A stretch of 64,000 nt of DNA. It comes from Aquabacterium commune (GTDB lineage Bacteria; Pseudomonadota; Gammaproteobacteria; Burkholderiales; Burkholderiaceae_C). The notes under the pieces were generated by a model. That model made no database searches and was not told where the DNA came from. It saw nothing but the letters and a program-made list of their open reading frames with translations. The position numbers were made by a program, and so were the translations under genes. The DNA lies in the NCBI RefSeq assembly GCF_004362855.1, contig NZ_SNXW01000007.1, positions 62,001 to 126,000 on the forward strand, given 5' to 3'. Shown piece after piece: positions 22,313 to 33,328 of the stretch (positions are counted from its first letter, which is position 1; each line of letters starts with the position of its first letter).

Positions 22313-22450
22313 GGCGTGGGTGCGTGGGTGCCTGGGGGTGGGCGTTCGTCGCGGAAGAAGACCGGCATTTTCGCACTTTGCCGGCTGACACCGGCCCACG
22401 CGCTGCCTTAGCATGTCCCCCACCAACGCGATGCATTGCACGGAGGACCC

Positions 22451-23293
22451 ATGGCCGATTTCCCCTCGCCCAGCACCCGCTCTGGCGCGCCCAAGCTCAT
22501 CAAAGCGATCTTCATCGGCGCGGCGGTGCTGATCGCGCTGTCTGCGCTCAACCCCATCACCGTCATCTCGGCGGGCGAGCGCGGCGTCAAGGCCACCTTC
22601 GGCAAGACGGACGACATGGTCTATGGACCGGGCATCCACTTCAAGGTGCCCATGGCGCAGACCATGCACCTGATGGACGTGCGCATCCAGAAGGGCGAGG
22701 GCGAAGGCGATGCCGCTTCGCGCGACCTGCAGTCCGTGCACACCCGCATCGCCATCAACTACCACCTGGACCCGGTCCGCGTGGTCGATGTCTTTCGCAA
22801 CATCGGGCCCAGCACCGAGATGGCGGCCGACCGCATCATCATCCCGGCCGCGCAGGAAGCGGTGAAGGCCATCACCGCCAAGTTCACGGCGGAAGAGCTC
22901 ATCACGCGCCGCACCGAGGTGCGCGACGCCATCAGCGCCCTGCTGCGCGAGAAGATGCAGCGCCACGGCCTGTTGCTGGACGAATTCGCCATCGTCAACT
23001 TCGCGTTTTCGCGCTCGTTCGCCGAGGCCATCGAGGCCAAGGTCAAGGCCGAGCAAGAGAAGCTCAAGGCCGAGCGCGACCTGCAGCGCATCGAGGTCGA
23101 GGCCAAGCAGAAGGTGGCCAGCGCCCGCGCCGAAGCCGACGCCCTGGCCCTGCAGCGCCAGCAGATCACCACCGACCTGCTGGCCCTGCGCCGCATCGAG
23201 AACGAACGCGACGCCATCCGCAAGTGGGACGGCAAGATGCCCAGCGTGACGGGCGGCAGCGTGCCGTTCATCAACGTCGAAGGCAAGCGTTGA
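22451..23293 (+). CDS. SPFH/prohibitin-family membrane protein
   Basis: A 280-residue inner-membrane scaffold protein. One N-terminal transmembrane helix (about residues 14-36, [20 protein letters not shown]) anchors an SPFH domain that starts [15 protein letters not shown] and includes [16 protein letters not shown] and [16 protein letters not shown] long coiled coil follows (about 195-250), rich in Lys, Glu and Ala. Such proteins oligomerise in rings and modulate proteases such as FtsH or organise membrane domains. It resembles prohibitins more than HflC, and no hflK neighbour is present. ATG at 22451 follows GGAGG. A short hairpin follows the stop. Confidence 0.87.
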
Positions 23294-23305
23294 TCAGGTG
23301 TGCTG

Positions 23306-23323
23306 GCGGAGCAGTTGCTCCGC
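23306..23323. terminator. Hairpin between SPFH gene and RHS-associated small gene
   Basis: A perfect inverted repeat, GCGGAGCA then TGCTCCGC, separated by two bases, lies between two convergent stops (23293 and 23329). It could end transcription from both directions. No T-run follows on either strand, so the call is tentative. Confidence 0.35.
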
Positions 23324-23328
23324 AGCCG

Positions 23329-23526
23329 TCACTGCTCCGATCTTCCTGATGCGTCTTTATCTTCTACCGTAGCGATCAATCCATTAATCAGCACACCAAA
23401 GACAAGTATCGATGCAAGGATCCAGAAATTTAGCCCGGTTACCCATGCAGCAACACCTGCCACTGCTGCACACACCACGAGCATCACTGCAAGAACCTTA
23501 AGGTTCACTCTCTCTGACAGTTTCAT
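23329..23526 (-). CDS. Small two-helix membrane protein coupled to orphan RHS tip (candidate immunity or partner)
   Basis: A 65-residue protein of no recognised family: a basic N-terminus ([10 protein letters not shown]), two hydrophobic helices (about residues 11-29 and 32-52) and a charged tail ending GRSEQ. The chosen ATG at 23526 overlaps the TGA of the RHS tip as ATGA, the same arrangement as the main RHS gene and its downstream gene, which favours this start over one nine bases upstream. By position it should be the immunity protein for the displaced tip, and its membrane location would fit a tip acting on the membrane. That function is inference from gene order only. Confidence 0.55.
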
Positions 23527-24154
23527 TTGGGACATCCACATTGCGCAGCTCCTGCGCCCCCGACAGCACCGACACCAGTACCATAAGCATTCACACCAAA
23601 GTTGGTCTTGCCAGCAGAGGCTCGCAACTGGGCATCTGTTTTGTTTGCCAAATTTGCGGGCCGCCAATGACGACCAACTCCCCCACGGAAAAACGTTTTC
23701 AGTCCCGCTCTGAAAGCGCTTGCCTCTGCTCCTGACGAGGCCAACAAGGATCCTGCCTTGGCCAGCCCTGCATATGCAAGGCGTCCGCCGCCTGCAGCAA
23801 GCGCGCCCACGCTACCGTAGCGATATGCATCGCTGCAAGGATCGAGTCCGCCATCGATTCCAGCAAGTTCGCGCAAATATCCCCCCGACCCAAGCAGCAG
23901 AGCATCACCAAAACCTGCGGAGGCATCGACCAATTCTTGCGGTAGCGGATCGCCCAAAGCCCACAAGCCCATGGGATCTGTGTACATCAGAGGATTACCC
24001 CCCACATATGCATACGGATTGACACCCCCCTCCACCCCAATCGGATCCGGCTGCGTGTACCGCCCCACCTGCGGATCGTAGTAGCGATGCCAGTTGTAGT
24101 GCAAGCCGCTCTCGGCGTCGAAGTACTGGCCGGGGAAGCGCAGGTTGATGGTGG
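23523..24154 (-). pseudogene. Displaced RHS C-terminal tip with a piece of core, no start
   Basis: On the minus strand the frame begins inside the RHS core sequence [20 protein letters not shown], runs through the core end ([23 protein letters not shown]) and continues into a tip of about 150 residues quite unlike that of the intact RHS gene, ending AAQCGCPK. Upstream the frame meets a TGA inside the hairpin at 24161-24182, and no ATG precedes the core, so it lacks a plausible start. The first 151 bases are almost identical to the matching part of the intact RHS gene. This is the usual form of an orphan RHS tip left by an earlier tip exchange. It can be expressed only if recombined with the intact gene. 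Confidence 0.8.
24004..24154. repeat. Direct repeat copy A (RHS core end, in orphan tip)
   Basis: Nearly identical (about three mismatches seen) to 25158-25308, spaced 1154 bases apart, same orientation. It encodes the RHS core end just before the variable tip. Recombination between the copies would delete the present tip and its downstream gene and join the orphan tip to the RHS gene. Confidence 0.85.
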
Positions 24155-24160
24155 AGCAAC

Positions 24161-24182
24161 GGGGGCTGCATCAGCAGCCCCC
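24161..24182 (-). terminator. Hairpin after RHS immunity candidate
   Basis: A perfect nine-base stem (GGGGGCTGC / GCAGCCCCC, loop ATCA) lies three bases after the stop of the gene at 24186-24629. It fits a transcription end for the RHS operon. No long T-run follows on the minus strand. The hairpin also marks the junction where the orphan core fragment begins. Confidence 0.5.
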
Positions 24183-24185
24183 GCG

Positions 24186-24629
24186 TCATTGCTCAATGGA
24201 TGGATCACAAAGCAACTGGCAGGTAACCTCCATCTCGACTGGAGGATCGGCGCCCAAGATCTCTTCAAAGTACTTGCTGCCAGCACCGTACTCGATGGAG
24301 AACACAAAGCCACCAACCACCCAAACGCTCGCCTCAAGTTGTTGCCCTGCGCCATCAACCCGCAGGCGAACCTTTGCAAGCAAGAGTTCTTCCGTTTTGT
24401 TGGGAAATGAGATGGCGGGATCAAAGGTCGCCTTGCCCTTCTCCATCCTGTAGAAATTGACCTCAACACCATCCGGTAACCGTTGGATTTTGTTCACCGC
24501 CTGGAGCTGCTTGTCCCAAACAGGTACCGCACCAGGACTGAGGCACTTCCTCACAGCAGTGAGGATCACACGTTCCAACTCTGACGGCTCGGAGCCTGAA
24601 CCAAACAACTTTGCAATCAAATTTTTCAT
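24186..24629 (-). CDS. Candidate immunity protein of the RHS tip
   Basis: A 147-residue soluble-looking protein with no motif I can name. It starts MKNLIAKLFGSGSEPSELER and has a mixed alpha/beta pattern with INKIQRLPDGVEVNFYRME-like (here VNKIQRLPDGVEVNFYRMEK), ASVWVVGGFVFSIEYGAGSK and a C-terminus holding one CQLLCD pair. The ATG at 24629 overlaps the TGA of the RHS gene as ATGA, so it is translated with the RHS protein, the normal arrangement for an immunity gene. Its codon and base composition is AT-richer than the surrounding chromosome, like the tip itself. An immunity role is inferred from position; a structural or chaperone role cannot be excluded. Confidence 0.6.
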   Translation of the reverse strand: MKNLIAKLFGSGSEPSELERVILTAVRKCLSPGAVPVWDKQLQAVNKIQRLPDGVEVNFYRMEKGKATFDPAISFPNKTEELLLAKVRLRVDGAGQQLEASVWVVGGFVFSIEYGAGSKYFEEILGADPPVEMEVTCQLLCDPSIEQ

Positions 24630-27600
24630 TGCGAGCACGTGCAATCGTTCATTGCCATACCAGCAGCACCGTATGCACTGCCAGCTCCTGCGCCTTTATA
24701 CACATTTGGAAGGCGCGTCCATTGCTGAGAAAGTCTGTTTGGCATTGGATTGGCAGCCTTCCACGTCCTGGGCATGAATCGATACCGATATGGATCAGAC
24801 AATGCATGCACTTCCTTGGTAACGTAGTTGCCATTCCAAAGAGCGCGCGGCCCACCCATTCGATTCGGGATCCAGTGCGAGAACTCCTTACCTGCACCTC
24901 GTGTACCAGCCGCACGGAGACCTCCGGCGACCCCTGTTGCAGCCGCAACGCCAGCACCGGCCCACTGTCCCGCACCGTAAGACCCGGAACACTTGTTCAC
25001 TCCCCCATTGGTCCCCATTTGATCACGCACCCAGTCGGTTAACCCCAGAGATAGCGCGTCCCCCATCCCCGCAGAAAAATCAACCAAGTCATCTGGCAAC
25101 GGATCACCCCAAGCCCACAAACCATACGGGTCGTAGTAGCTGTTTGGGTTCCCCTCGACATATGCATACGGATTGACACCCCCCTCCACCCCAATCGGAT
25201 CAGGCTGCGTGTACCGCCCCACCTGCGGATCGTAGTAGCGATGCCAGTTGTAGTGCAAGCCGCTCTCTGCGTCGAAGTACTGGCCGGGGAAGCGCAGGTT
25301 GATCGTGGTCTTGATGCCGTCGCCGTCGGGGTCTTCGTTGGGCGCGGTGTTGCCGAAGGCATCGCTGGTCCACGTCCACACCACCTTGCCCGTGCTGTCG
25401 GTGCCTCGGCGCGGGGTGTTGAGTTGGTCCACTTCCAGATAAACGATGTGCTGGCTGCTGGCCGTGTCATGGAAGATGACGGCGGCTGGCGTGTCGTCTT
25501 TCCAGGCATAGGTCACCAGGGCCTGGCCTGCGCGCGGGCCTGAGCCTGCAATTTCCTGGAACAGGTGGCCGTTGGGGTCGTGGATGTACAGGGTGATGGC
25601 GGGGGTTCCGGCGGGCGGGTTGGCCAGGGTTTTCTGGCCACGCAAGCCCAGGTGGTCGTAGAGATAGCTGGCGACCTGCACTCCGTTGATGCTGACCTTG
25701 GCAAGCTGGTTGTCGTCGTTGTAGGCCTGCGTGCGGGTCACCAGGCTGCCATTGAGGCGCACGCGTTCGCGGGTGACGTTGCCTGCGGCATCGTGGATCA
25801 CGTTCTGGCCATTGCGCGTGGCCAGGCGGTTGCTGTTGGCCACCACCGTGTAGCTGCCGCTGGCATCGCCCGTGCGGTTGCCGTTGGCGTCGTAGGTGAT
25901 GTTTTGGGTGCTGGGGCCGGTTTCTGCCTTGAGGCGGTCCAGCACGTCGTACTGGTAGGTGGCGGCTTGGCCGTCGCGGGTGATGCCTGAGACGTTGCCG
26001 CGCTCGTCGTGGGTGATGGTTTCGGTGGATGTTGTGGATGTGGTCTGTGCGTGGGCAGCCTCGGGCTGGGTCAGCGCCCCGATCGTCACAAGCAGTGCCA
26101 GCAGCATCGACATCAACCTGGCTGGTCGCGTGTGTTGGGCTTTGGCGTGTTTGCGCAGGGTTGCCATCAGGCCCGCACCCAGGCTCAACAGCGCCCAGGC
26201 CGGGATGGGCACGTCGCCATCTTGCACGCTGCCGCTGCCGCCTGCTGGCGCGCTGCGGCTGCCACTGCTCAGGCCCGACCCCATGTCGAAGTCCCGGTCA
26301 AAAACACGCTGGTTGCCATAGGTGCTGCGGTCGGCTTCGCCTGTGGCCTGGTAGGTGGTTTCGCTCACCACCACGGCCGCTTGCCCATTGAGCAGGCCCA
26401 GCACTTGGCTGGCACGGCCTTCGGCATCGCGCCCCAGGGCCACGCTTTGGTTGCCCGCGCCCACGCTGGCGCTCAGACGGTCCTCACCGTCGTAGCCCCA
26501 TTGACTGGCCACCTGCTGCGCACTGTTGCTGCCCAGGGCCGCAAAGCGCTGCGCCTGGCCGGTGATGTTGCCGAAGGCGTCGTAAGACAGATAGCGTGTG
26601 CCCAAGGCTGTGCTGATCTGGCACAGGCGGCCCTGGCCGTTGCCGCATGCCAAAGGGGCACCCGAGGGGCTGCTGTCCCAGCGCCAGCTTTGGTCCAGGC
26701 TGGTGTCAGCACCTGTGCCGGTGTGCTGAACAGCAGTCAGGCGGTTGAGGGCATCGAATTGCTGGGCCATGGTGAGTCCCCGCGCATCCACCCGGCTCAC
26801 GAGGTTGCCTGCGGCATCGAAGGTTTGCTTGACCGCGCCCGGCGTGCCGGGTGTGCTGCCGCTCGTCTCTGTGCTGGTTTCTTGCAGCACCTGACCGAAG
26901 CCGTCGCGCTGGTACGTCCAGCCACCGCCATTGGGGGCGCTGAGCGCTTGCAGTTCGTCGTTGGCCTTCGGTGCAAGCGTGGTGGGCTTGGCTGCGCCAT
27001 TGATCGCATCTTCGATGGTGGTGAGTTGGTCCAGCGCGTTGTAGCGACGCGCTTCCTTGGGCGGGCTGCTTTCGACATAAGCCGCCACCTGTGGGCGCTG
27101 GGTGGTGGTGGGGTTGCCCTGGGCGTCGTAGCCCAGTTCTGTGGCGGCATCTTGCCCATTGATCTGGCGGATGTGGCTGGACAGACGGTTGAGCGCATCG
27201 AACTCACGGCGGATGAGTTTGGCGCTGCTGCCGTCGGCGTTCTTCCACTCTTCACGGGTGACGTTGCCTGCGTTGTCCAGGGTGTAGCTGACGGTTTCAC
27301 CGCTGGCGCTGCGCATACCGATGAGGCGGTGGGCGTCGTCGTACTGGAAGGTGTAGCGGCGGCCCGTGGCGGCCCCTGCTTGGCCCGCGCGGGTGCTGAC
27401 CACGCCGCCGGGCAGGCCGACTTCATCGAGCAGGCCACGCGGGTCGTAGTGGTAGGTGGTGGTGCGGGTGGCCGCGCCACTGGCGCTGAGGCTGCGGCTG
27501 CGGCTGGTGAGGAAACCGCGGGGTGAGTAGGTGTAGGTGGTGCTCAGGCCGTTGGCGTCGCTCATGGCCAGCAGGCGCCCAGCCTTGTCGTACTGGGTGT

Positions 27601-29773
27601 AGTTGGTGACTTGGCCCAAGGCGTTGGTGACCTGCTTGAGGTCGCCCATGGTGTGGCCCACGGCTTGGGGGTCGGCACCGGTGAAGCTGGTGGCATCCCA
27701 GTACTCGTAGGTGGTGGTGTCGGCCACGTCGGTGCGCGGGCCATCTTCGCTGAGCACCTGGCCGTATTGGTTGTAGGTGTAGGTCCAGGTGCGGGTGTCC
27801 GGCGTGGTGTTGCCACTCACGCCGTGGCCCACGGTGGCCGCGAAGCCTTGCGCACCCGTGGCGTCGGTGGTGGACTGCTCCACCCGCTTGCACAGCACCA
27901 CGATCGGTTTGCCATCGGGCAGGTTGGCCACGCTGGTGGCGCCGTACTTGGGGCTGGTGCAGCTGGCCGGTGTGCCGCCGTTGAAGGGGTCGGGCTGGCC
28001 GTTGTAGACCCAGGTGGTGAGTTTGTTCGGCTCGGCTTGCTTGGTCTTCAAGGCCCAGTCGGGGTGCCATTGGGTGCTGATTTTGCGGCTTTGGGTGCCG
28101 TCTGCGGCCTTGGGCAGGGTTGAGCCCTCGGGCGTGACGCTGGCGCAGTTGGTGCCGCCGCTGCCGCCAGTCAGGCCTTCCACGCGGACCTTCTCCAGGT
28201 TGGCTACACCGTCGGCCGTGGTGGTGCTGAGGTAGCAGGCGCGGTGGCCGTTGAAATCAGTTATGGAAGCAATGTTGTTGCGCGTGTCATAGGTGTACGT
28301 CTTAGTGGCTGGTAGCGCCCCGGCATCACTGGCAGGCAGATCGACACTGGTGGGCAAAGTTACCCCAAGACTCGTTGAGAAATTGTACTTCCAAGCAGAC
28401 TGCAATGGATCGGTTATCACCGCCTTCGATATTAACCCAAAGCCATAGCCGCCATTCAACTCATATGAAATCGCAAAACTGTTAACTGGCTGCGATGCGG
28501 AACCTGACGGCGCCAAGGCAAATCTCTTCGTATTGATCGCCCTGTTATTTTTATCATAACCAAACGAAGACAGCCTCCAATTATTTTCATCCACCACACC
28601 AGTAAGAAGATTTGCCGCACCCGACGAGCGATCCTGAACATAGGAGTACTCGTTGTAATAATACAATAACGCAGCACCATCCGAATACCCCACAGAAGTC
28701 AAGTTATTACTTGGCGCAGCACCCGCCTGCACGACAGAACTGGGACCATCATAGCCATACCTAATGACTTCCCCGTTGACGCTGGAAACAGCCTGAATTC
28801 GTGATTGCCTGTCATACACAAACGACAGGCTTCGATCAAATGAATCAGACACACCGATCATCAACCCTGGCGCTGGAGCAATAAAAACAGAGGTACCTGA
28901 AGTGGAATAATTCAAACGCCGAAACCTACCATCAAACGATGTGATCGATTGGAGATTGCCAGCCAAGTCATACACCTCAATCTCACCACCAAGCAAATCG
29001 GTGAACCGATAGCCAACAATGGCACCAGACGTTTTCGCGAGGACCAAACTCCCCTTCACATCAACATCCGAAACATAACCGAGTGCATTTGGCGAAAATT
29101 GATATACCTTGCCGTCGTGACGCCAAACATTCAACACCCCCGCCCCAGATCGGCTTGATGTTATCTGTCGATTATAGGTATGCGACCAACCTGCACCCAG
29201 ATCCCTCTTGTTTCCCGCCATCAGACTCAACCCCGGAACCAAATTGATAGAGTTATAAAACCTTTCAAAAGGGAGGGTGACCGTTGAGACATCAATCACC
29301 TCTTCATGTTTGTTGGCAGAGTTAAAGCTAATGGGGTTGCCACACTGCGTACAGGATGGCCCAGCCAATTTTGATGCGGGCAAAGCAGGTGCGTTAAGGC
29401 AGTTACCCTTTCCATCATCAGCGCCACCACTGGGGCAGCCTGACCATGCATCCGCACCATAATTGGGATCGACAAAGCCATTACTGATCCAGCGCACCGT
29501 GAAATGACACACCCAACCAGCGTATCCGTTGTGTGGAGTGGCGCCATCATAAGAGACATAAGTTCTGTATATATCCTTTTGGTTTCTGTAATTCATTGCA
29601 GCAACGCATGCGTCATCTACAGAACGATAGTAAAAAAGATTTGGCTGGCCATCAGCAAACCAGTAAACAGCCGGATAATCAAATGCCCAACTTGAATTTG
29701 TTGAAAAAATAACTGCAATAGCTGCAATCAACCTCCACCAATGACACCACCCAGCTACAAAATATATTTTCAT
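24626..29773 (-). CDS. RHS/YD-repeat polymorphic toxin-type protein
   Basis: A 1715-residue protein. An N-terminal signal segment (LIAAIAVIFSTNSSWA) is followed by a Cys/Trp-rich region and a DUF6531-like block (HEEVIDVSTVTLPFERFYNS). Many RHS/YD repeats follow (for example YDANGNRT, YQYDVLDRLK), and the hyperconserved core end is [10 protein letters not shown] ... DPYGL at about 1548-1552. Residues about 1553-1715 are the variable tip, with KEFSHWIPNRMGG and a C-terminal CTCSQ; I do not recognise its activity. RHS cores form a shell that encloses a toxic tip. Odd features are a CTERM-like and a signal-like hydrophobic segment at 1188-1243, and an AT-rich 5' third joined to a GC-rich middle. 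Secretion route is unknown; no VgrG, PAAR or T6SS gene is nearby. Confidence 0.88.
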   Translation of the reverse strand: MKIYFVAGWCHWWRLIAAIAVIFSTNSSWAFDYPAVYWFADGQPNLFYYRSVDDACVAAMNYRNQKDIYRTYVSYDGATPHNGYAGWVCHFTVRWISNGFVDPNYGADAWSGCPSGGADDGKGNCLNAPALPASKLAGPSCTQCGNPISFNSANKHEEVIDVSTVTLPFERFYNSINLVPGLSLMAGNKRDLGAGWSHTYNRQITSSRSGAGVLNVWRHDGKVYQFSPNALGYVSDVDVKGSLVLAKTSGAIVGYRFTDLLGGEIEVYDLAGNLQSITSFDGRFRRLNYSTSGTSVFIAPAPGLMIGVSDSFDRSLSFVYDRQSRIQAVSSVNGEVIRYGYDGPSSVVQAGAAPSNNLTSVGYSDGAALLYYYNEYSYVQDRSSGAANLLTGVVDENNWRLSSFGYDKNNRAINTKRFALAPSGSASQPVNSFAISYELNGGYGFGLISKAVITDPLQSAWKYNFSTSLGVTLPTSVDLPASDAGALPATKTYTYDTRNNIASITDFNGHRACYLSTTTADGVANLEKVRVEGLTGGSGGTNCASVTPEGSTLPKAADGTQSRKISTQWHPDWALKTKQAEPNKLTTWVYNGQPDPFNGGTPASCTSPKYGATSVANLPDGKPIVVLCKRVEQSTTDATGAQGFAATVGHGVSGNTTPDTRTWTYTYNQYGQVLSEDGPRTDVADTTTYEYWDATSFTGADPQAVGHTMGDLKQVTNALGQVTNYTQYDKAGRLLAMSDANGLSTTYTYSPRGFLTSRSRSLSASGAATRTTTYHYDPRGLLDEVGLPGGVVSTRAGQAGAATGRRYTFQYDDAHRLIGMRSASGETVSYTLDNAGNVTREEWKNADGSSAKLIRREFDALNRLSSHIRQINGQDAATELGYDAQGNPTTTQRPQVAAYVESSPPKEARRYNALDQLTTIEDAINGAAKPTTLAPKANDELQALSAPNGGGWTYQRDGFGQVLQETSTETSGSTPGTPGAVKQTFDAAGNLVSRVDARGLTMAQQFDALNRLTAVQHTGTGADTSLDQSWRWDSSPSGAPLACGNGQGRLCQISTALGTRYLSYDAFGNITGQAQRFAALGSNSAQQVASQWGYDGEDRLSASVGAGNQSVALGRDAEGRASQVLGLLNGQAAVVVSETTYQATGEADRSTYGNQRVFDRDFDMGSGLSSGSRSAPAGGSGSVQDGDVPIPAWALLSLGAGLMATLRKHAKAQHTRPARLMSMLLALLVTIGALTQPEAAHAQTTSTTSTETITHDERGNVSGITRDGQAATYQYDVLDRLKAETGPSTQNITYDANGNRTGDASGSYTVVANSNRLATRNGQNVIHDAAGNVTRERVRLNGSLVTRTQAYNDDNQLAKVSINGVQVASYLYDHLGLRGQKTLANPPAGTPAITLYIHDPNGHLFQEIAGSGPRAGQALVTYAWKDDTPAAVIFHDTASSQHIVYLEVDQLNTPRRGTDSTGKVVWTWTSDAFGNTAPNEDPDGDGIKTTINLRFPGQYFDAESGLHYNWHRYYDPQVGRYTQPDPIGVEGGVNPYAYVEGNPNSYYDPYGLWAWGDPLPDDLVDFSAGMGDALSLGLTDWVRDQMGTNGGVNKCSGSYGAGQWAGAGVAAATGVAGGLRAAGTRGAGKEFSHWIPNRMGGPRALWNGNYVTKEVHALSDPYRYRFMPRTWKAANPMPNRLSQQWTRLPNVYKGAGAGSAYGAAGMAMNDCTCSQ
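25158..25308. repeat. Direct repeat copy B (RHS core end, in intact RHS gene)
   Basis: Partner of the repeat at 24004-24154. The mismatches noted by eye lie at the CGGATC(C/A)GG, CTC(G/T)GCG and GAT(G/C)GTGG positions. Similarity stops sharply at 25308 on one side and, on the other, shortly after the NPYAYV codons where the tips diverge. Confidence 0.85.
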
Positions 29774-30116
29774 GATTACCCACCCTCATTATTTATTTAT
29801 GAAAACCCAACCGCGCACTGAAAACACAAAAAGGTAGACAACAAGTGAACCCATGTTTTTAGCACACTTGGTTATATATTCTCTTACACCTGCACGCATA
29901 CATTATGACCACACACATCACGTTCGTATGTCAAGACCAGCCTGGTAGCGATCTACTTGGCTCAGGCGTGAGTGGCCGAAGCATATTTCGTGCAGCAACA
30001 CATGAAATTCTTGTCCAAGAAACCATGCTTGGCGCGTATCTTCCGCCTCGTCTCACGACAATTTTGTGACTCAAACACGGCTGACGCAAACGCTGCAGGC
30101 ATGAACACTCGCGGCG
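29774..30116. promoter_or_regulatory. AT-rich divergent region between RHS and XRE genes
   Basis: About 340 bases with no credible gene. The half next to the RHS gene (29774-29930) is strongly AT-rich for this genome. On the minus strand it holds GAGGG about nine bases before the RHS ATG and several TATA-like runs (29870-29885), so it probably contains the RHS promoter. The other half is of ordinary composition. No clear -35/-10 pair could be assigned. Confidence 0.4.
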
Positions 30117-30359
30117 ATGTCCGCGCCAGCCATGTCTCCCCCGTCCGAAGCGCGCAGCGCTCGCGCGGTGCTGGCCACAAACCTGATCCGATTGCGCGCC
30201 ACGCGCGGCTGGTCGCAAGAAGCGTTGGCCTTCGAAGCAGGCTTGCACCGCACTTTCGTGGCGCATGTGGAGCGCCAAGCGCGCAACATCTCGCTGGACA
30301 ACCTGGAGCGCCTGGCCACGGCGCTCGGCGTGCCGACTCACCAGTTGCTCCAGCCCTGA
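30117..30359 (+). CDS. XRE-family helix-turn-helix regulator
   Basis: An 80-residue single-domain DNA-binding protein: NLIRLRATRGWSQEALAFEA begins the helix-turn-helix, followed by GLHRTFVAHVERQARNISLD and NLERLATALGVPTHQLLQ. This is the standard Cro/CI-like fold, ending shortly after helix 5. ATG codons at 30117 and 30132 are both possible; neither has a strong ribosome site. It is divergent from the RHS gene and may regulate it or be the relic of a restriction or toxin-antitoxin module, but no partner gene is visible next to it. Confidence 0.82.
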   Translation: MSAPAMSPPSEARSARAVLATNLIRLRATRGWSQEALAFEAGLHRTFVAHVERQARNISLDNLERLATALGVPTHQLLQP

Positions 30360-30989
30360 GCTTCACCTGCCGGCCTCACGGCCCCGGTCTTGGCCGGTTG
30401 AGCCCCGCCGTTCAGCAGAACCCTGCGGCCCGCCGCACGGCATGCCCCGCACGCCGCCTGGGCCAAGCCAGGTGCCGCGTCACCGCGCCGGGCGGCGGCC
30501 CATTCCCAGCGGCCCGCCGCCCATCCCGAGCGGCATCTCGCCTGTTTTGCCTTGCCGGCAAGCCTGGGTGAATGATCCGCCGCTCACTGAGCCTTGCGCA
30601 CCGCCCCCAACGCCTCGCGCGCCGCACTTCCAGCTTGGAACGGTCACAGCTTTGCGTCTTGCGCCCCGCACAAAAAGCCCGGCGCGCGAAGCTCTCTGGG
30701 TTGCAGCTGGCACAAAGTGGCTTGCGCCCGAGGCTCTCTCACGTTGCGCGCGAGGCGAAACAGGCGGCAAGCCGCTCGGCACCCGCGACACGCGACTCAC
30801 ATCGGGCGGCGCGCCAGTGAAAACAGCTTGCGCGCCACGGTGCTTGGCGCGCGGCCCGCAGGCGGAGGCTGGCGTGCGAGCCCAAGCGCCTCGCGCGCAA
30901 GCTCACACGCCTTGCGAGCCAGACGCCATGGGCGACCAGCCGCCCCGTTTTCCCACTGGGCCTCGTCAAACACAAGAAAAGATCCACCC
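30360..30989. other. Geneless GC-rich stretch
   Basis: About 630 bases after the XRE gene. Open frames here are arginine-, alanine- and serine-rich and look like chance frames of GC-rich DNA. I see no ribosome site with a credible protein, no RNA gene, and only short imperfect internal repeats (for example around 30690-30710 and 30730-30750, both containing GGCTCTCT or AGCTCTCT). It may be the remnant of lost genes. Confidence 0.4.
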
Positions 30990-31012: not shown

Positions 31013-31039
31013 TTGGTACCGCAGTCACAGGAGCGCAGC

Positions 31040-31288
31040 ATGGCAAAAAACACCAGCATCGTTTTGGGCGATCACTTTGAGGGCTTCATTGCCCAGCAAG
31101 TCAGCGCAGGGCGCTATGGTTCGGCCAGTGAGGTGGTGCGCGCCAGCCTCAGGCTGCTGGAAGAGCATGAGCAAAAGGTTCAAGCGCTCCGTCAGGCCTT
31201 GATTGAAGGTGAGAACAGCGGCGAGGCTGGCGCGCTCGACATGAAAGACATCATGCGTGCAGCACGAGACGACGCTGCGGGACATTGA
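31040..31288 (+). CDS. ParD-like antitoxin (CopG/ribbon-helix-helix)
   Basis: An 82-residue antitoxin of a type II toxin-antitoxin module. The N-terminus [20 protein letters not shown] is the ribbon-helix-helix DNA-binding domain, followed by [20 protein letters not shown]-like sequence (here [20 protein letters not shown]). The charged C-terminal part ([12 protein letters not shown]) normally wraps the ParE toxin. The ATG at 31040 follows AGGAG with seven bases spacing. Its TGA overlaps the toxin ATG by one base. The antitoxin looks intact while the toxin gene is broken, so it may now act as an orphan repressor of its palindromic operator. Confidence 0.88.
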
Positions 31289-31441
31289 TGCTGGATGTCC
31301 TCTACCTCCATCGCGCAAGAGCTGATTTGATCGGCATCTGGCGCAAGACACGAGAGACGTGGGGCGAAGCCCAGGCGGACAGCTACCTGCATCGTGCGCA
31401 TCCTGCACGAGCGCATGGATGTTGCAGGCACCCTTGCCTGA
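31288..31441 (+). pseudogene. ParE-like toxin gene with internal deletion
   Basis: The frame starts properly (ATG overlapping the parD stop) and encodes the usual ParE N-terminus, RARADLIGIWRKTRETWGEA then QADSYL. Directly afterwards, in a different frame, lies the usual ParE C-terminus IVRILHERMDVAGTLA followed by TGA at 31439-31441. The 45-50 residues normally between these parts are missing, and the join changes frame. The original frame runs on with unrelated sequence. The toxin is therefore inactive. Confidence 0.85.
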
Positions 31442-31456
31442 AACAGAGCCGCAAGC

Positions 31457-33328
31457 TCAACCTTGCGGCCCAAGCTGACCCTGCCCATGCTCCCCCGCCT
31501 GCTGCAACCTCCACATCTGCGCATAGCGCCCGTTGGCGCCCAGCAGCAGCGGGTGGGTGCCGCGCTCGATGATGCGGCCATGCTCCATCACCAAAATCTC
31601 GTGTGCGTTGACGATGGTGGACAGCCGGTGCGCGATCACCAGCACCGTCTTGCCCTGCGCCACGGCGGCGAGTTCGGCCTGGATGGCGCGTTCGTTGGCC
31701 GAGTCGAGGGCCGAGGTGGCCTCGTCGAACACCAGGATGGGCGGGTTCTTCAGCAGCGTGCGCGCGATGGCCACGCGCTGTTTTTCACCGCCTGAGAGCT
31801 TCAGCCCCCGCTCGCCGACCATGGTGCCGTAGCCGCCGGGTGTGCTGGTGATGAAGTCGTGGATGCGCGCCGCACGTGCGGCCTGCTCGACCTCTTCGCG
31901 CGTGGCCTCGGGCCGGCCGTAGGCGATGTTGTAGGCCACGGTGTCGTTGAAGAGCACGGTGTCCTGCGGCACGATGCCGATGGCGCGGCGCAGGCTGTCT
32001 TGCGTCAGGCCCTGCACGTCGTGGCCATGCACGGTGATGCGGCCCTGCTGCACGTCGTAGAAGCGGTAGAGCAGGCGCGCCAGCGTGCTCTTGCCCGAAC
32101 CCGAAGGGCCGACCACGGCCACGGTTTGCCCGGCCGGGATCTCGAAGCTCACGTCGTGCAGGATGGGCCGCGCCGGGTCGTAGGCGAAGTGCACGTGGTC
32201 GAAGCGCACCGAGGGGGCGGCCTGCACGCCGTGGCCTTTGAGCAGCAGCGGGCGCGCATCGGGCGCATCGGCCACCTCGCGCTCGCGCAGCATCAGCGTG
32301 AACATCTTGTCGAGGTCGGTCAGCGACTGCTTGATCTCGCGGTAGATGACGCCCAGGAAGTTCAGCGGGATGTAGAGCTGGATCATGAAGGCGTTGACCA
32401 TGACCAGGTCGCCCACCGTCATGCGCCCAGCCACCACGCCTTCGGTGGCGCGCCACAGCATGGCGATCAAACCCACGGCGATGATGGTCTGCTGGCCCGC
32501 GTTGAGCAGCGACAGCGTCTGCTGCGACTTCACGCCGGCACGGCGCAAACGCTCCAGGGCCTCGTCGTAGCGGTGCGACTCGAAGGCCTCGTTGTTGAAG
32601 TACTTGACGGTTTCGTAGTTCAGCAGCGAGTCGATGGCGCGGGTGTGGGCTTTGGAGTCGAGCTCGTTCATCTCACGCCGATAGCGCGTGCGCCAGGTCG
32701 TGACCGTCACCGTGAAGGCGATGTACACGACGAGCGCGCTCAGCGTGATCCAGGCAAAGGCCATGTCGAACTTGACGGCCAGCAGCGACAGCACCAGCGT
32801 GACCTCGATGAGCGTGGGCACGATGCTGTAGAGCGAGTAGGAAATCAGCGAGTGCACGGCGCGGGTGCCGCGCTCGATGTCGCGCGTCATGCCGCCGGTC
32901 TGGCGCTCCAGGTGGAAGCGCAGGCTCAGGGCGTGGAGGTGCGAGAACACCTGCAGCGAGATGCTGCGCGCCGCGCCTTCGGTGGCCTTGGCGAACACCA
33001 GCTCGCGCAGCTCGGTGAACACCGAGGTGGACAGGCGCAGCAGGCCGTAGGCCACCAGCAAGCCCACCGGCACCACCAGCAGGGCCTGCGGGCTGCTGGC
33101 GTTGGGCGCCAGGCGGTCCACCAGGTTCTTGAGCAGCAGGGGCACGCCCACGTTGGCCAGCTTGGCGCAGATCATGAAGCTCAAAGCCGCCACCACGCGC
33201 CACTTGTAGGTCCACAGGTAGGGCCACAGGCGCGCCAGGGTGTCGCGGTCGCTGCGCCGCTGGGTGGCGCCTTCTGGAACAATGGGGAGGTTTTTTCGCA
33301 CCCTTCGATTGTCGATCGCTTTGACCAT
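31457..33328 (-). CDS. ABC transporter, ATM1/HMT1-type permease-ATPase
   Basis: A 623-residue half-transporter that dimerises in the inner membrane. The N-terminal six-helix domain has the ATM1-family segment FHLERQTGGMTRDIERGTRA and NYETVKYFNNEAFE. The ATPase domain has Walker A GPSGSGKST (about 407-415), signature LSGGEKQR, Walker B ILVFDEATSALD and an H-loop (IAHRLST). Mitochondrial and bacterial ATM1 proteins export glutathione conjugates or metal-thiol complexes, and this is the likely substrate class. The start at 33328 overlaps head-to-head by two bases with the thioesterase start, so at least one start may be wrong or the promoters lie inside the opposing genes. Confidence 0.9.
   Translation of the reverse strand: MVKAIDNRRVRKNLPIVPEGATQRRSDRDTLARLWPYLWTYKWRVVAALSFMICAKLANVGVPLLLKNLVDRLAPNASSPQALLVVPVGLLVAYGLLRLSTSVFTELRELVFAKATEGAARSISLQVFSHLHALSLRFHLERQTGGMTRDIERGTRAVHSLISYSLYSIVPTLIEVTLVLSLLAVKFDMAFAWITLSALVVYIAFTVTVTTWRTRYRREMNELDSKAHTRAIDSLLNYETVKYFNNEAFESHRYDEALERLRRAGVKSQQTLSLLNAGQQTIIAVGLIAMLWRATEGVVAGRMTVGDLVMVNAFMIQLYIPLNFLGVIYREIKQSLTDLDKMFTLMLREREVADAPDARPLLLKGHGVQAAPSVRFDHVHFAYDPARPILHDVSFEIPAGQTVAVVGPSGSGKSTLARLLYRFYDVQQGRITVHGHDVQGLTQDSLRRAIGIVPQDTVLFNDTVAYNIAYGRPEATREEVEQAARAARIHDFITSTPGGYGTMVGERGLKLSGGEKQRVAIARTLLKNPPILVFDEATSALDSANERAIQAELAAVAQGKTVLVIAHRLSTIVNAHEILVMEHGRIIERGTHPLLLGANGRYAQMWRLQQAGEHGQGQLGPQG

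What the first reader, a model, noticed from the sequence alone, without database searches (positions are those of the whole stretch)
23329..29773. RHS locus with an intact tip and a displaced second tip joined by a 151-bp repeat
The intact RHS gene ends in one tip; 500 bases downstream lies a start-less second tip preceded by a core fragment that is nearly identical over 151 bases (24004-24154 versus 25158-25308, three mismatches by eye). Recombination between the copies would replace tip and immunity gene in one step. Seen directly: the repeat, the missing start, and the two different tips. The swapping role follows from known RHS orphan modules; that it happens here is inference.
Basis: partly seen in the sequence, partly recalled or inferred. 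Interest (0 to 1): 0.7.

Follow-up and report, generated by a model that had tools for sequence, protein, structure and literature searches.

The report
Rhs toxin gene with spare tip
A bacterium carries a large Rhs toxin gene followed by a silent spare toxin ending joined by a near-identical repeat, a well-known arrangement for swapping toxin tips, in a carrier gene that itself looks like two secreted proteins fused into one.

Summary
The two copies differ at 3 of 151 bases, all synonymous, and weaker similarity runs on into a shared pretoxin. The second tip has no convincing start and a small gene of its own. The 7.1-kb locus is an insertion missing from the same site in the 6 relatives fetched. 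Two sister species carry the same Rhs core elsewhere, with other tips and no such repeat. The two copies differ by 3 bases from each other but by 12-15 from either sister, so the repeat is recent or kept alike. A relative of the resident tip, followed by a relative of its immunity gene, lies among short Rhs fragments in Shewanella.

This is the known C-terminal displacement of rhs loci (PMC2935791; recombination shown in Salmonella, PMC3967940): a new member of a known kind. Recombination here was not seen. Beyond the finding: the Rhs protein carries in mid-chain an anchor-like motif followed by a signal-peptide-like stretch. Near this seam, in one weakly supported clade, 4 relatives are split into two genes and 5 genomes are fused. 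My searches showed no description of it.

The parts
24626..29773 (-). Intact RHS gene, 1715 aa: signal-peptide-like N-terminus (by eye), DUF6531, RHS repeats, RHS-associated core, pretoxin, tip 1
   Evidence: ORF; Pfam RHS_repeat 2.1e-44 and DUF6531 1.6e-6; NCBIfam Rhs_assc_core 2.6e-24
26153..26221 (-). Mid-chain C-terminal-anchor-like motif DGDVPIPAWALLSLGAGLMATLR (aa 1185-1207)
   Evidence: no sorting-motif profile hit on this protein
26048..26116 (-). Signal-peptide-like stretch LMSMLLALLVTIGALTQPEAAHA (aa 1220-1242), just after the anchor motif
   Evidence: no signal-peptide predictor was available
25158..25308 (-). Core copy of the 151-bp repeat in the intact RHS gene
24905..25099 (-). 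Pretoxin 1, 44% identical to pretoxin 2
24629..24904 (-). Tip 1, predicted toxin (SHWIPxR...NGNxV...H...DxYRY)
   Evidence: relatives in Shewanella profunda L058 and Alcanivorax nanhaiticus L049; weaker matches in G071 (5.7e-6) and G219 (8.5e-4)
24186..24629 (-). Predicted immunity gene 1, 147 aa; start overlaps the RHS stop
   Evidence: relative directly after the tip-1 relative in L058 (tblastn 4e-5); alignment; model pLDDT 87
24159..24184 (-). Perfect 11-bp hairpin between immunity gene 1 and the orphan, no T run
   Evidence: -25.7 kcal/mol; not reported by the terminator scan
24004..24154 (-). Core copy of the 151-bp repeat at the head of the orphan
23523..24155 (-). Orphan tip module: core fragment, pretoxin 2 and tip 2, open frame without a plausible start
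   Evidence: (Rhs_assc_core 4e-26)
23329..23535 (-). Small membrane protein gene (two hydrophobic helices by eye), candidate immunity protein for tip 2; start overlaps the orphan's end
   Evidence: weak matches in 3 of 269 other family genomes, none beside a recognisable RHS in the stretch fetched; none in plasmids; role inferred from position
23294..30376 (.). Whole inserted segment (right end uncertain, 30376-30504)
   Evidence: absent between the same neighbours in G036 and G026
30117..30359 (+). Small XRE-type helix-turn-helix gene, divergent from RHS, inside the inserted segment
   Evidence: ORF; HTH family recognised by eye, no profile run

Best explanation
This is an rhs locus that has gone through C-terminal displacement. 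An incoming module (3' core fragment, tip 1, immunity 1, hairpin) recombined into the core of the resident rhs gene and pushed the former ending (core fragment, tip 2, immunity 2) downstream, where it has no convincing start and no secretion signal. The orphan tip is silent but its frame is intact. A crossover between the two 151-bp core copies could load it back onto the gene in frame, at the cost of tip 1 and its immunity gene. Shown: the repeat, the shared frame, the open start-poor orphan, the absence of such a repeat in the two closest relatives, the insertion, and tip-1 relatives among short Rhs fragments elsewhere. Inferred: that displacement produced it, that the tips are antibacterial toxins, that the two small genes are immunity genes, and that recombination can occur.
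For: Repeat: 3 of 151 mismatches, all synonymous, against 12-15 of 151 to the same stretch in sister species G026 and G036. G026 and G036 have the core (DNA identity 89% and 82%) with unrelated tips and no core repeat downstream. Tip-1 and immunity-1 relatives lie together among short Rhs fragments behind a full-length Rhs gene in Shewanella profunda. GC is 47-58% in tips and small genes against 63-67% in the C-half and middle of the core, a pattern described for rhs (PMC2935791, passages). 14 of 43 surveyed RHS loci with at least 1.5 kb downstream carry a repeat of the gene's 3' part (not each checked to be a start-less tip, and a few loci are near-duplicates). Mechanism published: PMC2935791, PMC3967940, and for CDI PMC3150448.
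Against: No strain of the species with the other arrangement was available. The repeat is short (151 bp) beside the 522 bp of the Salmonella case. The one good relative of tip 2, a Rhodanobacter plasmid Rhs, has a downstream gene that does not resemble the small membrane gene here. An immunity-1 relative in G115 (7e-11) lies without a recognisable tip-1 relative in the stretch fetched. No toxin family was recognised for either tip.
Confidence: 0.88

Rival explanations
1. The orphan is a standing reserve used by regular switching, with the repeat kept alike by repeated recombination or gene conversion.
For: Copies are 98% alike while both are 90-92% to sister species; the orphan frame is intact to its end; recombination shown in Salmonella (PMC3967940).
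Against: A single recent displacement explains the same identity; no recombinant observed; a simple switch deletes immunity gene 1.
Confidence: 0.2
2. The orphan is kept for its immunity gene alone; the tip is a passenger.
For: The small gene has AGGAG upstream and overlaps the orphan's end. In CDI, orphan immunity is made while the orphan toxin appears not to be (PMC3150448, passages). Orphan Rhs immunity protects in Serratia (PMC10539506, passages). Weak relatives of the small gene occur away from recognisable RHS genes.
Against: The tip frame is intact and aligns to the C-terminus of its Rhodanobacter relative. A strong hairpin lies upstream of the orphan.
Confidence: 0.25
3. Decaying remnant without function.
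For: No convincing start codon; Jackson et al. describe degraded tips in Serratia.
Against: Open frame of about 210 codons, no frameshift against the Rhodanobacter relative; repeat nearly identical.
Confidence: 0.15
4. The orphan tip is translated independently from an internal start.
For: In-frame TTG at 24104 and ATGs at 23987 and 23972 exist, and several codons have 4 of 6 matches to AGGAGG; the accepted gene at 24629 has only 3.
Against: Starts inside the core or later would lack any secretion signal; no promoter-like site on that strand in the scan, though the scan also found none for RHS itself.
Confidence: 0.05

Closest known systems
rhs dissociated tips / C-terminal displacement in Enterobacteriaceae (Jackson et al. 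2009, PMC2935791)
   Same: Intact rhs followed by core fragment plus different tip, GC-poor; core copies nearly identical within the locus
   Different: Aquabacterium (inferred); one orphan only; signal-peptide-like N-terminus; carrier with a mid-chain seam
Salmonella Typhimurium LT2 rhs-main / rhs-CT-orphan (Koskiniemi et al. 2014, PMC3967940)
   Same: Main and orphan tips each followed by a small gene, joined by a direct repeat
   Different: Repeat 522 bp at 95% there, 151 bp at 98% here; recombination and toxicity shown there, not here
Orphan cdiA-CT/cdiI modules (Poole et al. 2011, PMC3150448)
   Same: Toxin-immunity modules, generally without translation start, behind a full-length toxin gene
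   Different: CdiA instead of an Rhs shell
Two-gene RHS of Methyloversatilis, Zoogloea and Azoarcus (L059, L040, L043, L133)
   Same: Nearest RHS relatives outside the fused ones; split near the seam; second gene with a leader-like hydrophobic start
   Different: Two ORFs instead of one; only L059's first gene ends in the anchor motif, the other three end otherwise

Membership tests
Rhs polymorphic toxin | RHS/YD repeats and RHS-associated core domain | tested here: met
Rhs polymorphic toxin | Variable C-terminal tip after a conserved core | tested here: met
   Same core, unrelated tips in G026 and G036
Rhs polymorphic toxin | Cognate immunity gene directly downstream | tested here: inconclusive
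   Of 4 tip-1 relatives (L058, L049, G071, G219) only L058 has an immunity-1 tblastn hit behind it; L049 and G071 have a gene there that aligns at 19-25%; G219 gave no hit and was not read further; no neutralisation test
Rhs orphan tip module | Fragment without start, with core homology to the upstream gene | tested here: met
   start judged by codon and ribosome-site match only
Rhs orphan tip module | Own immunity gene | tested here: inconclusive
   Small membrane gene 23329-23535; only weak relatives, not beside recognisable RHS in the stretches fetched; the tip-2 relative has a different neighbour
Rhs orphan tip module | Recombination onto the main gene | not testable with these tools
   One genome of the species; no reads
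T6SS Rhs effector | N-terminal PAAR and a VgrG neighbour | tested here: not met
   N-terminus is signal-like followed by DUF6531, no PAAR hit; no VgrG recognised among nearby ORFs (by eye). The genome does have a TssC/VipB gene

The most novel reading that the evidence does not exclude
The carrier belongs to a clade of Sec-exported Rhs proteins made of two separately targeted parts. The N-terminal shell ends in an IPTL/PEP-CTERM-like anchor, and the C-terminal part, carrying the tip, starts with its own signal peptide. In Burkholderiales the two genes are fused in frame with both signals kept inside, so the chain would cross the inner membrane twice and be cut by signal peptidase after AHA, giving an anchored shell and a free C-terminal core with toxin. 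That would be a two-part Rhs comparable to TcB/TcC (comparison recalled), made by processing of one chain, and the orphan tip would reload only the second part.
Probability: 0.33. Interest if true: 0.7.

Novelty: new member of a known kind. Interest (0 to 1): 0.4.

Why it matters
The orphan module is ordinary for rhs loci; it adds a clear case with a known insertion site, two sister species lacking the repeat, and a tip family whose relatives sit among short Rhs fragments in Shewanella and Alcanivorax. The mid-chain seam, if real, bears on how Sec-exported Rhs toxins without PAAR are built and delivered, which the papers I saw do not explain.

Tried and rejected
Independent translation of the orphan: no start with more than 4 of 6 ribosome-site matches, but the measure is weak. 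Repeat as a transposon end: no dedicated search; the repeat finder reported no inverted pair of 30 bases or more near it. A 10-mer CAGTTGCTCC at both ends of the insertion (23312 and 30342, the only two in the window, 0.2 expected) was picked after the fact and one copy lies in coding sequence, so I do not claim a target duplication. T6SS delivery: TssC/VipB is in the genome, but the protein lacks PAAR. Toxin identity: no Pfam or NCBIfam toxin family; tip-1 model too poor to use (pLDDT 47); immunity-1 model good (87) but best PDB match E 0.16, no meaningful fold match. Immunity-1 sequence gave no PDB match. Plasmid search found no tip-1 match and no match to the small gene 23329-23535. Matches in family genomes, own genome included each time: tip 1 in 3 of 399, tip 2 in 1 of 399, immunity 1 in 2 of 399, small gene in 4 of 270. 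HTH gene as a conserved partner of RHS: only a 78-base match in G036, covering the gene's 3' end, so not claimed.

Against the seam reading: of the 4 split relatives only L059's first gene ends in the anchor motif; no sorting-motif profile hits the window protein; IPTL-CTERM scored in 1 of the 4 proteins, below its cutoff; the clade has SH-aLRT 86 only.
Full report
WHAT IS THERE. The window lies in a genome of 4,204,494 bases in 39 contigs. I therefore take the genus as Aquabacterium; this is inferred. On the minus strand, in transcription order: RHS gene 29773-24626 (1715 aa), a 147-aa gene (24629-24186), a hairpin, a fragment without a convincing start 24155-23523, and a 68-aa membrane protein gene 23535-23329.

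THE REPEAT. 3 of 151 bases differ, all at synonymous positions. Beyond it, similarity falls but continues through a related pretoxin (267 bases at 82%; 44% amino-acid identity), and then the tips are unrelated. Against G026 and G036 the main copy differs at 15 and 15 bases and the orphan copy at 12 and 14. The two copies thus share a much more recent common ancestor, or are kept alike.

THE ORPHAN. None of its 16 in-frame ATG/GTG/TTG codons has more than 4 of 6 matches to AGGAGG upstream; RHS has 5, the small gene 23535 has 5, and the gene 24629 only 3. The frame is open to the end and aligns without a frameshift to the C-terminus of a Rhodanobacter plasmid Rhs protein. The small gene behind it starts inside the orphan's last codons, with AGGAG upstream. 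It has weak matches (E 3e-4 to 5e-4) in 3 of 269 other family genomes; the roughly 3-kb stretches around them show no RHS match at E 0.01.

THE LOCUS AS AN INSERTION. The left neighbour gene (SPFH/Band 7, 22436-23293) matched in 21 of 42 genus genomes, own included. I fetched that site from 6 of the 20 others. In all 6 the left flank and the region from about 31.5 kb onward are present, and no part of the RHS matched between them. In G036 and G026 only 54 and 80 bases separate the matched flanks, placing the insertion at 23294 to about 30376 (30504 at most). The other four have 1.0-1.1 kb of other sequence there. In G036 and G026 the RHS lies on a different contig from the Band 7 gene; in G026 it starts at a contig edge.

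THE SISTER LOCI. G026 and G036 keep the core (DNA 89% and 82%), end in unrelated tips, and have no repeat of the core downstream in the stretches searched. 7 of 42 genus genomes, own included, match the RHS protein at 1e-30 or better; 4 of these 7 do so only at 47% identity or lower.

TIPS AS CASSETTES. Tip 1 has relatives in Shewanella profunda (40%) and Alcanivorax nanhaiticus (38%), both in short frames that begin with a piece of core and lie behind a full-length Rhs gene; the Shewanella frame begins with an ATG, so I do not call it start-less. The three sequences share SHWIP, NGN and D-x-YRY. In Shewanella the next gene is a relative of immunity 1 (tblastn 4e-5). In Alcanivorax and in G071 the next gene aligns to it only weakly (19% and 25%) and is not a tblastn hit, so there the pairing rests on position. 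G219's match (8.5e-4) was not seen again by tblastn and not read further. G115 has an immunity-1 relative (7e-11) without a recognisable tip-1 relative in the stretch fetched. Survey: I gave 81 loci to the script (two of them second copies of G026 and G036 records); 50 had an RHS ORF of 600 aa or more on the searched strand, 43 of these had at least 1.5 kb downstream, and 14 of 43 showed a repeat of 80 bases or more of the RHS 3' part (identity 67-97%). L047 and L060 are near-duplicates. I did not check that each is a start-less tip.

COMPARISON. Jackson et al. 2009 (PMC2935791; abstract excerpt and passages) describe this: intact rhs, GC-poor downstream region, near-identical core fragments and dissimilar tips, explained by displacement through recombination with circular intermediates. 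Koskiniemi et al. 2014 (PMC3967940; passages) show recombination between main and orphan over 522 bp at 95%. Poole et al. 2011 (PMC3150448; passages) show functional orphan modules in CDI. Hagan et al. 2023 (PMC10539506; passages) show exchange of tips and orphan immunity in Serratia. A search for Aquabacterium with rhs gave 4 papers, none on this subject by its listing.

THE SEAM. The RHS protein contains, in mid-chain, DGDVPIPAWALLSLGAGLMATLRKHAK followed by LMSMLLALLVTIGALTQPEAAHA-QTT (aa 1185-1245). The first part is nearly unchanged in G026 and G036; the second differs in G036 but stays hydrophobic and ends in AQA. NG86 dN and dS over aa 1186-1245 are 0.08 and 0.38 (window-G026) and 0.29 and 1.04 (window-G036). 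A DNA pattern for GDVPxPxWA occurs at 6 places in 4 of 42 genus genomes, the reversed control pattern at none: 3 are these RHS genes, and the 3 others, all in G011, start 28-29 residues before the end of an open frame. In Methyloversatilis L059 the RHS is two genes; the first ends PDGDVPLPLWALVALGGALCGAVSRRSR, and an ATG of the second overlaps the stop of the first by one base, with a hydrophobic leader about 40 residues later (true start unknown). Methyloversatilis universalis L040, Zoogloea L043 and Azoarcus L133 are also split near there, but their first genes end otherwise, and in L133 a further small gene lies between. Of 91 distinct C-half matches examined, 9 have a 15-residue hydropathy peak of 1.7 or more just before the C-half: window, G026, G036, G376, G383 (fused) and L040, L043, L059, L133 (split); all others are at 1.46 or less, though 8 of the 91 show 25 or fewer residues before the match. 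A quick tree of 45 of these (the best 45 by BLAST rank covering at least 200 residues) puts the 9 together with SH-aLRT 86, below the 95 mark, and the 4 split ones together with 98. The fused frame of G376 starts at a contig edge; Pfam's IPTL-CTERM motif scores 17.1 bits in it (cutoff 20.8, E 0.005) at the expected place, but not in the other three proteins of that call nor in the window protein. NCBIfam gave no sorting-motif hit on the window's stretch or on the five other proteins. Other RHS of the genus (G003, G038) and Caldimonas L044 are split at a different place, near aa 868 of the window protein. Three literature searches (listings only, plus passages of PMC13018210) showed no description of this seam. 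The two-part, processed-chain reading is inference.

VERDICT. The finding is real and correctly read as a known kind of rhs locus. What is unusual is the carrier, not the orphan.

Noticed in passing
26048-26221: RHS protein carries a C-terminal-anchor-like motif followed by a signal-peptide-like stretch in mid-chain; four relatives are split into two genes near there, five genomes are fused.
   Followed up: partly
L135 and L136; L044: In Aquabacterium G038 and G003 and in Caldimonas, RHS is split into two ORFs at another place (near aa 868 of the window protein); in G038 the second ORF again has a leader-like stretch near its start, and there are two such pairs in tandem.
   Followed up: partly
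31013-31572: ParD-type antitoxin gene (Pfam 3.1e-33) followed by a ParE-like frame (by eye) that loses similarity after EAQADSYL; the G036 counterpart runs on and has about 136 more bases there.
   Followed up: partly
L175, 1036-1476 and 1453-2586: A weak relative of the small gene 23329-23535 in G272 lies next to, and opposite to, a frame that looks by eye like an integron integrase; possibly a stray immunity gene on a cassette.
   Followed up: no
23312-23321 and 30342-30351: CAGTTGCTCC occurs only twice in the window, at the two ends of the inserted segment; picked after the fact, may be chance.
   Followed up: no
28261-29773: The N-terminal part of the RHS gene is 47.5% GC against 67% in the middle, and gave no DNA match in G026 or G036 (G026's gene is cut by a contig edge), so the gene is probably a mosaic at its 5' end too.
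   Followed up: no
24186-24629: Predicted immunity protein 1 folds confidently (pLDDT 87) but has no good match among solved structures.
   Followed up: partly
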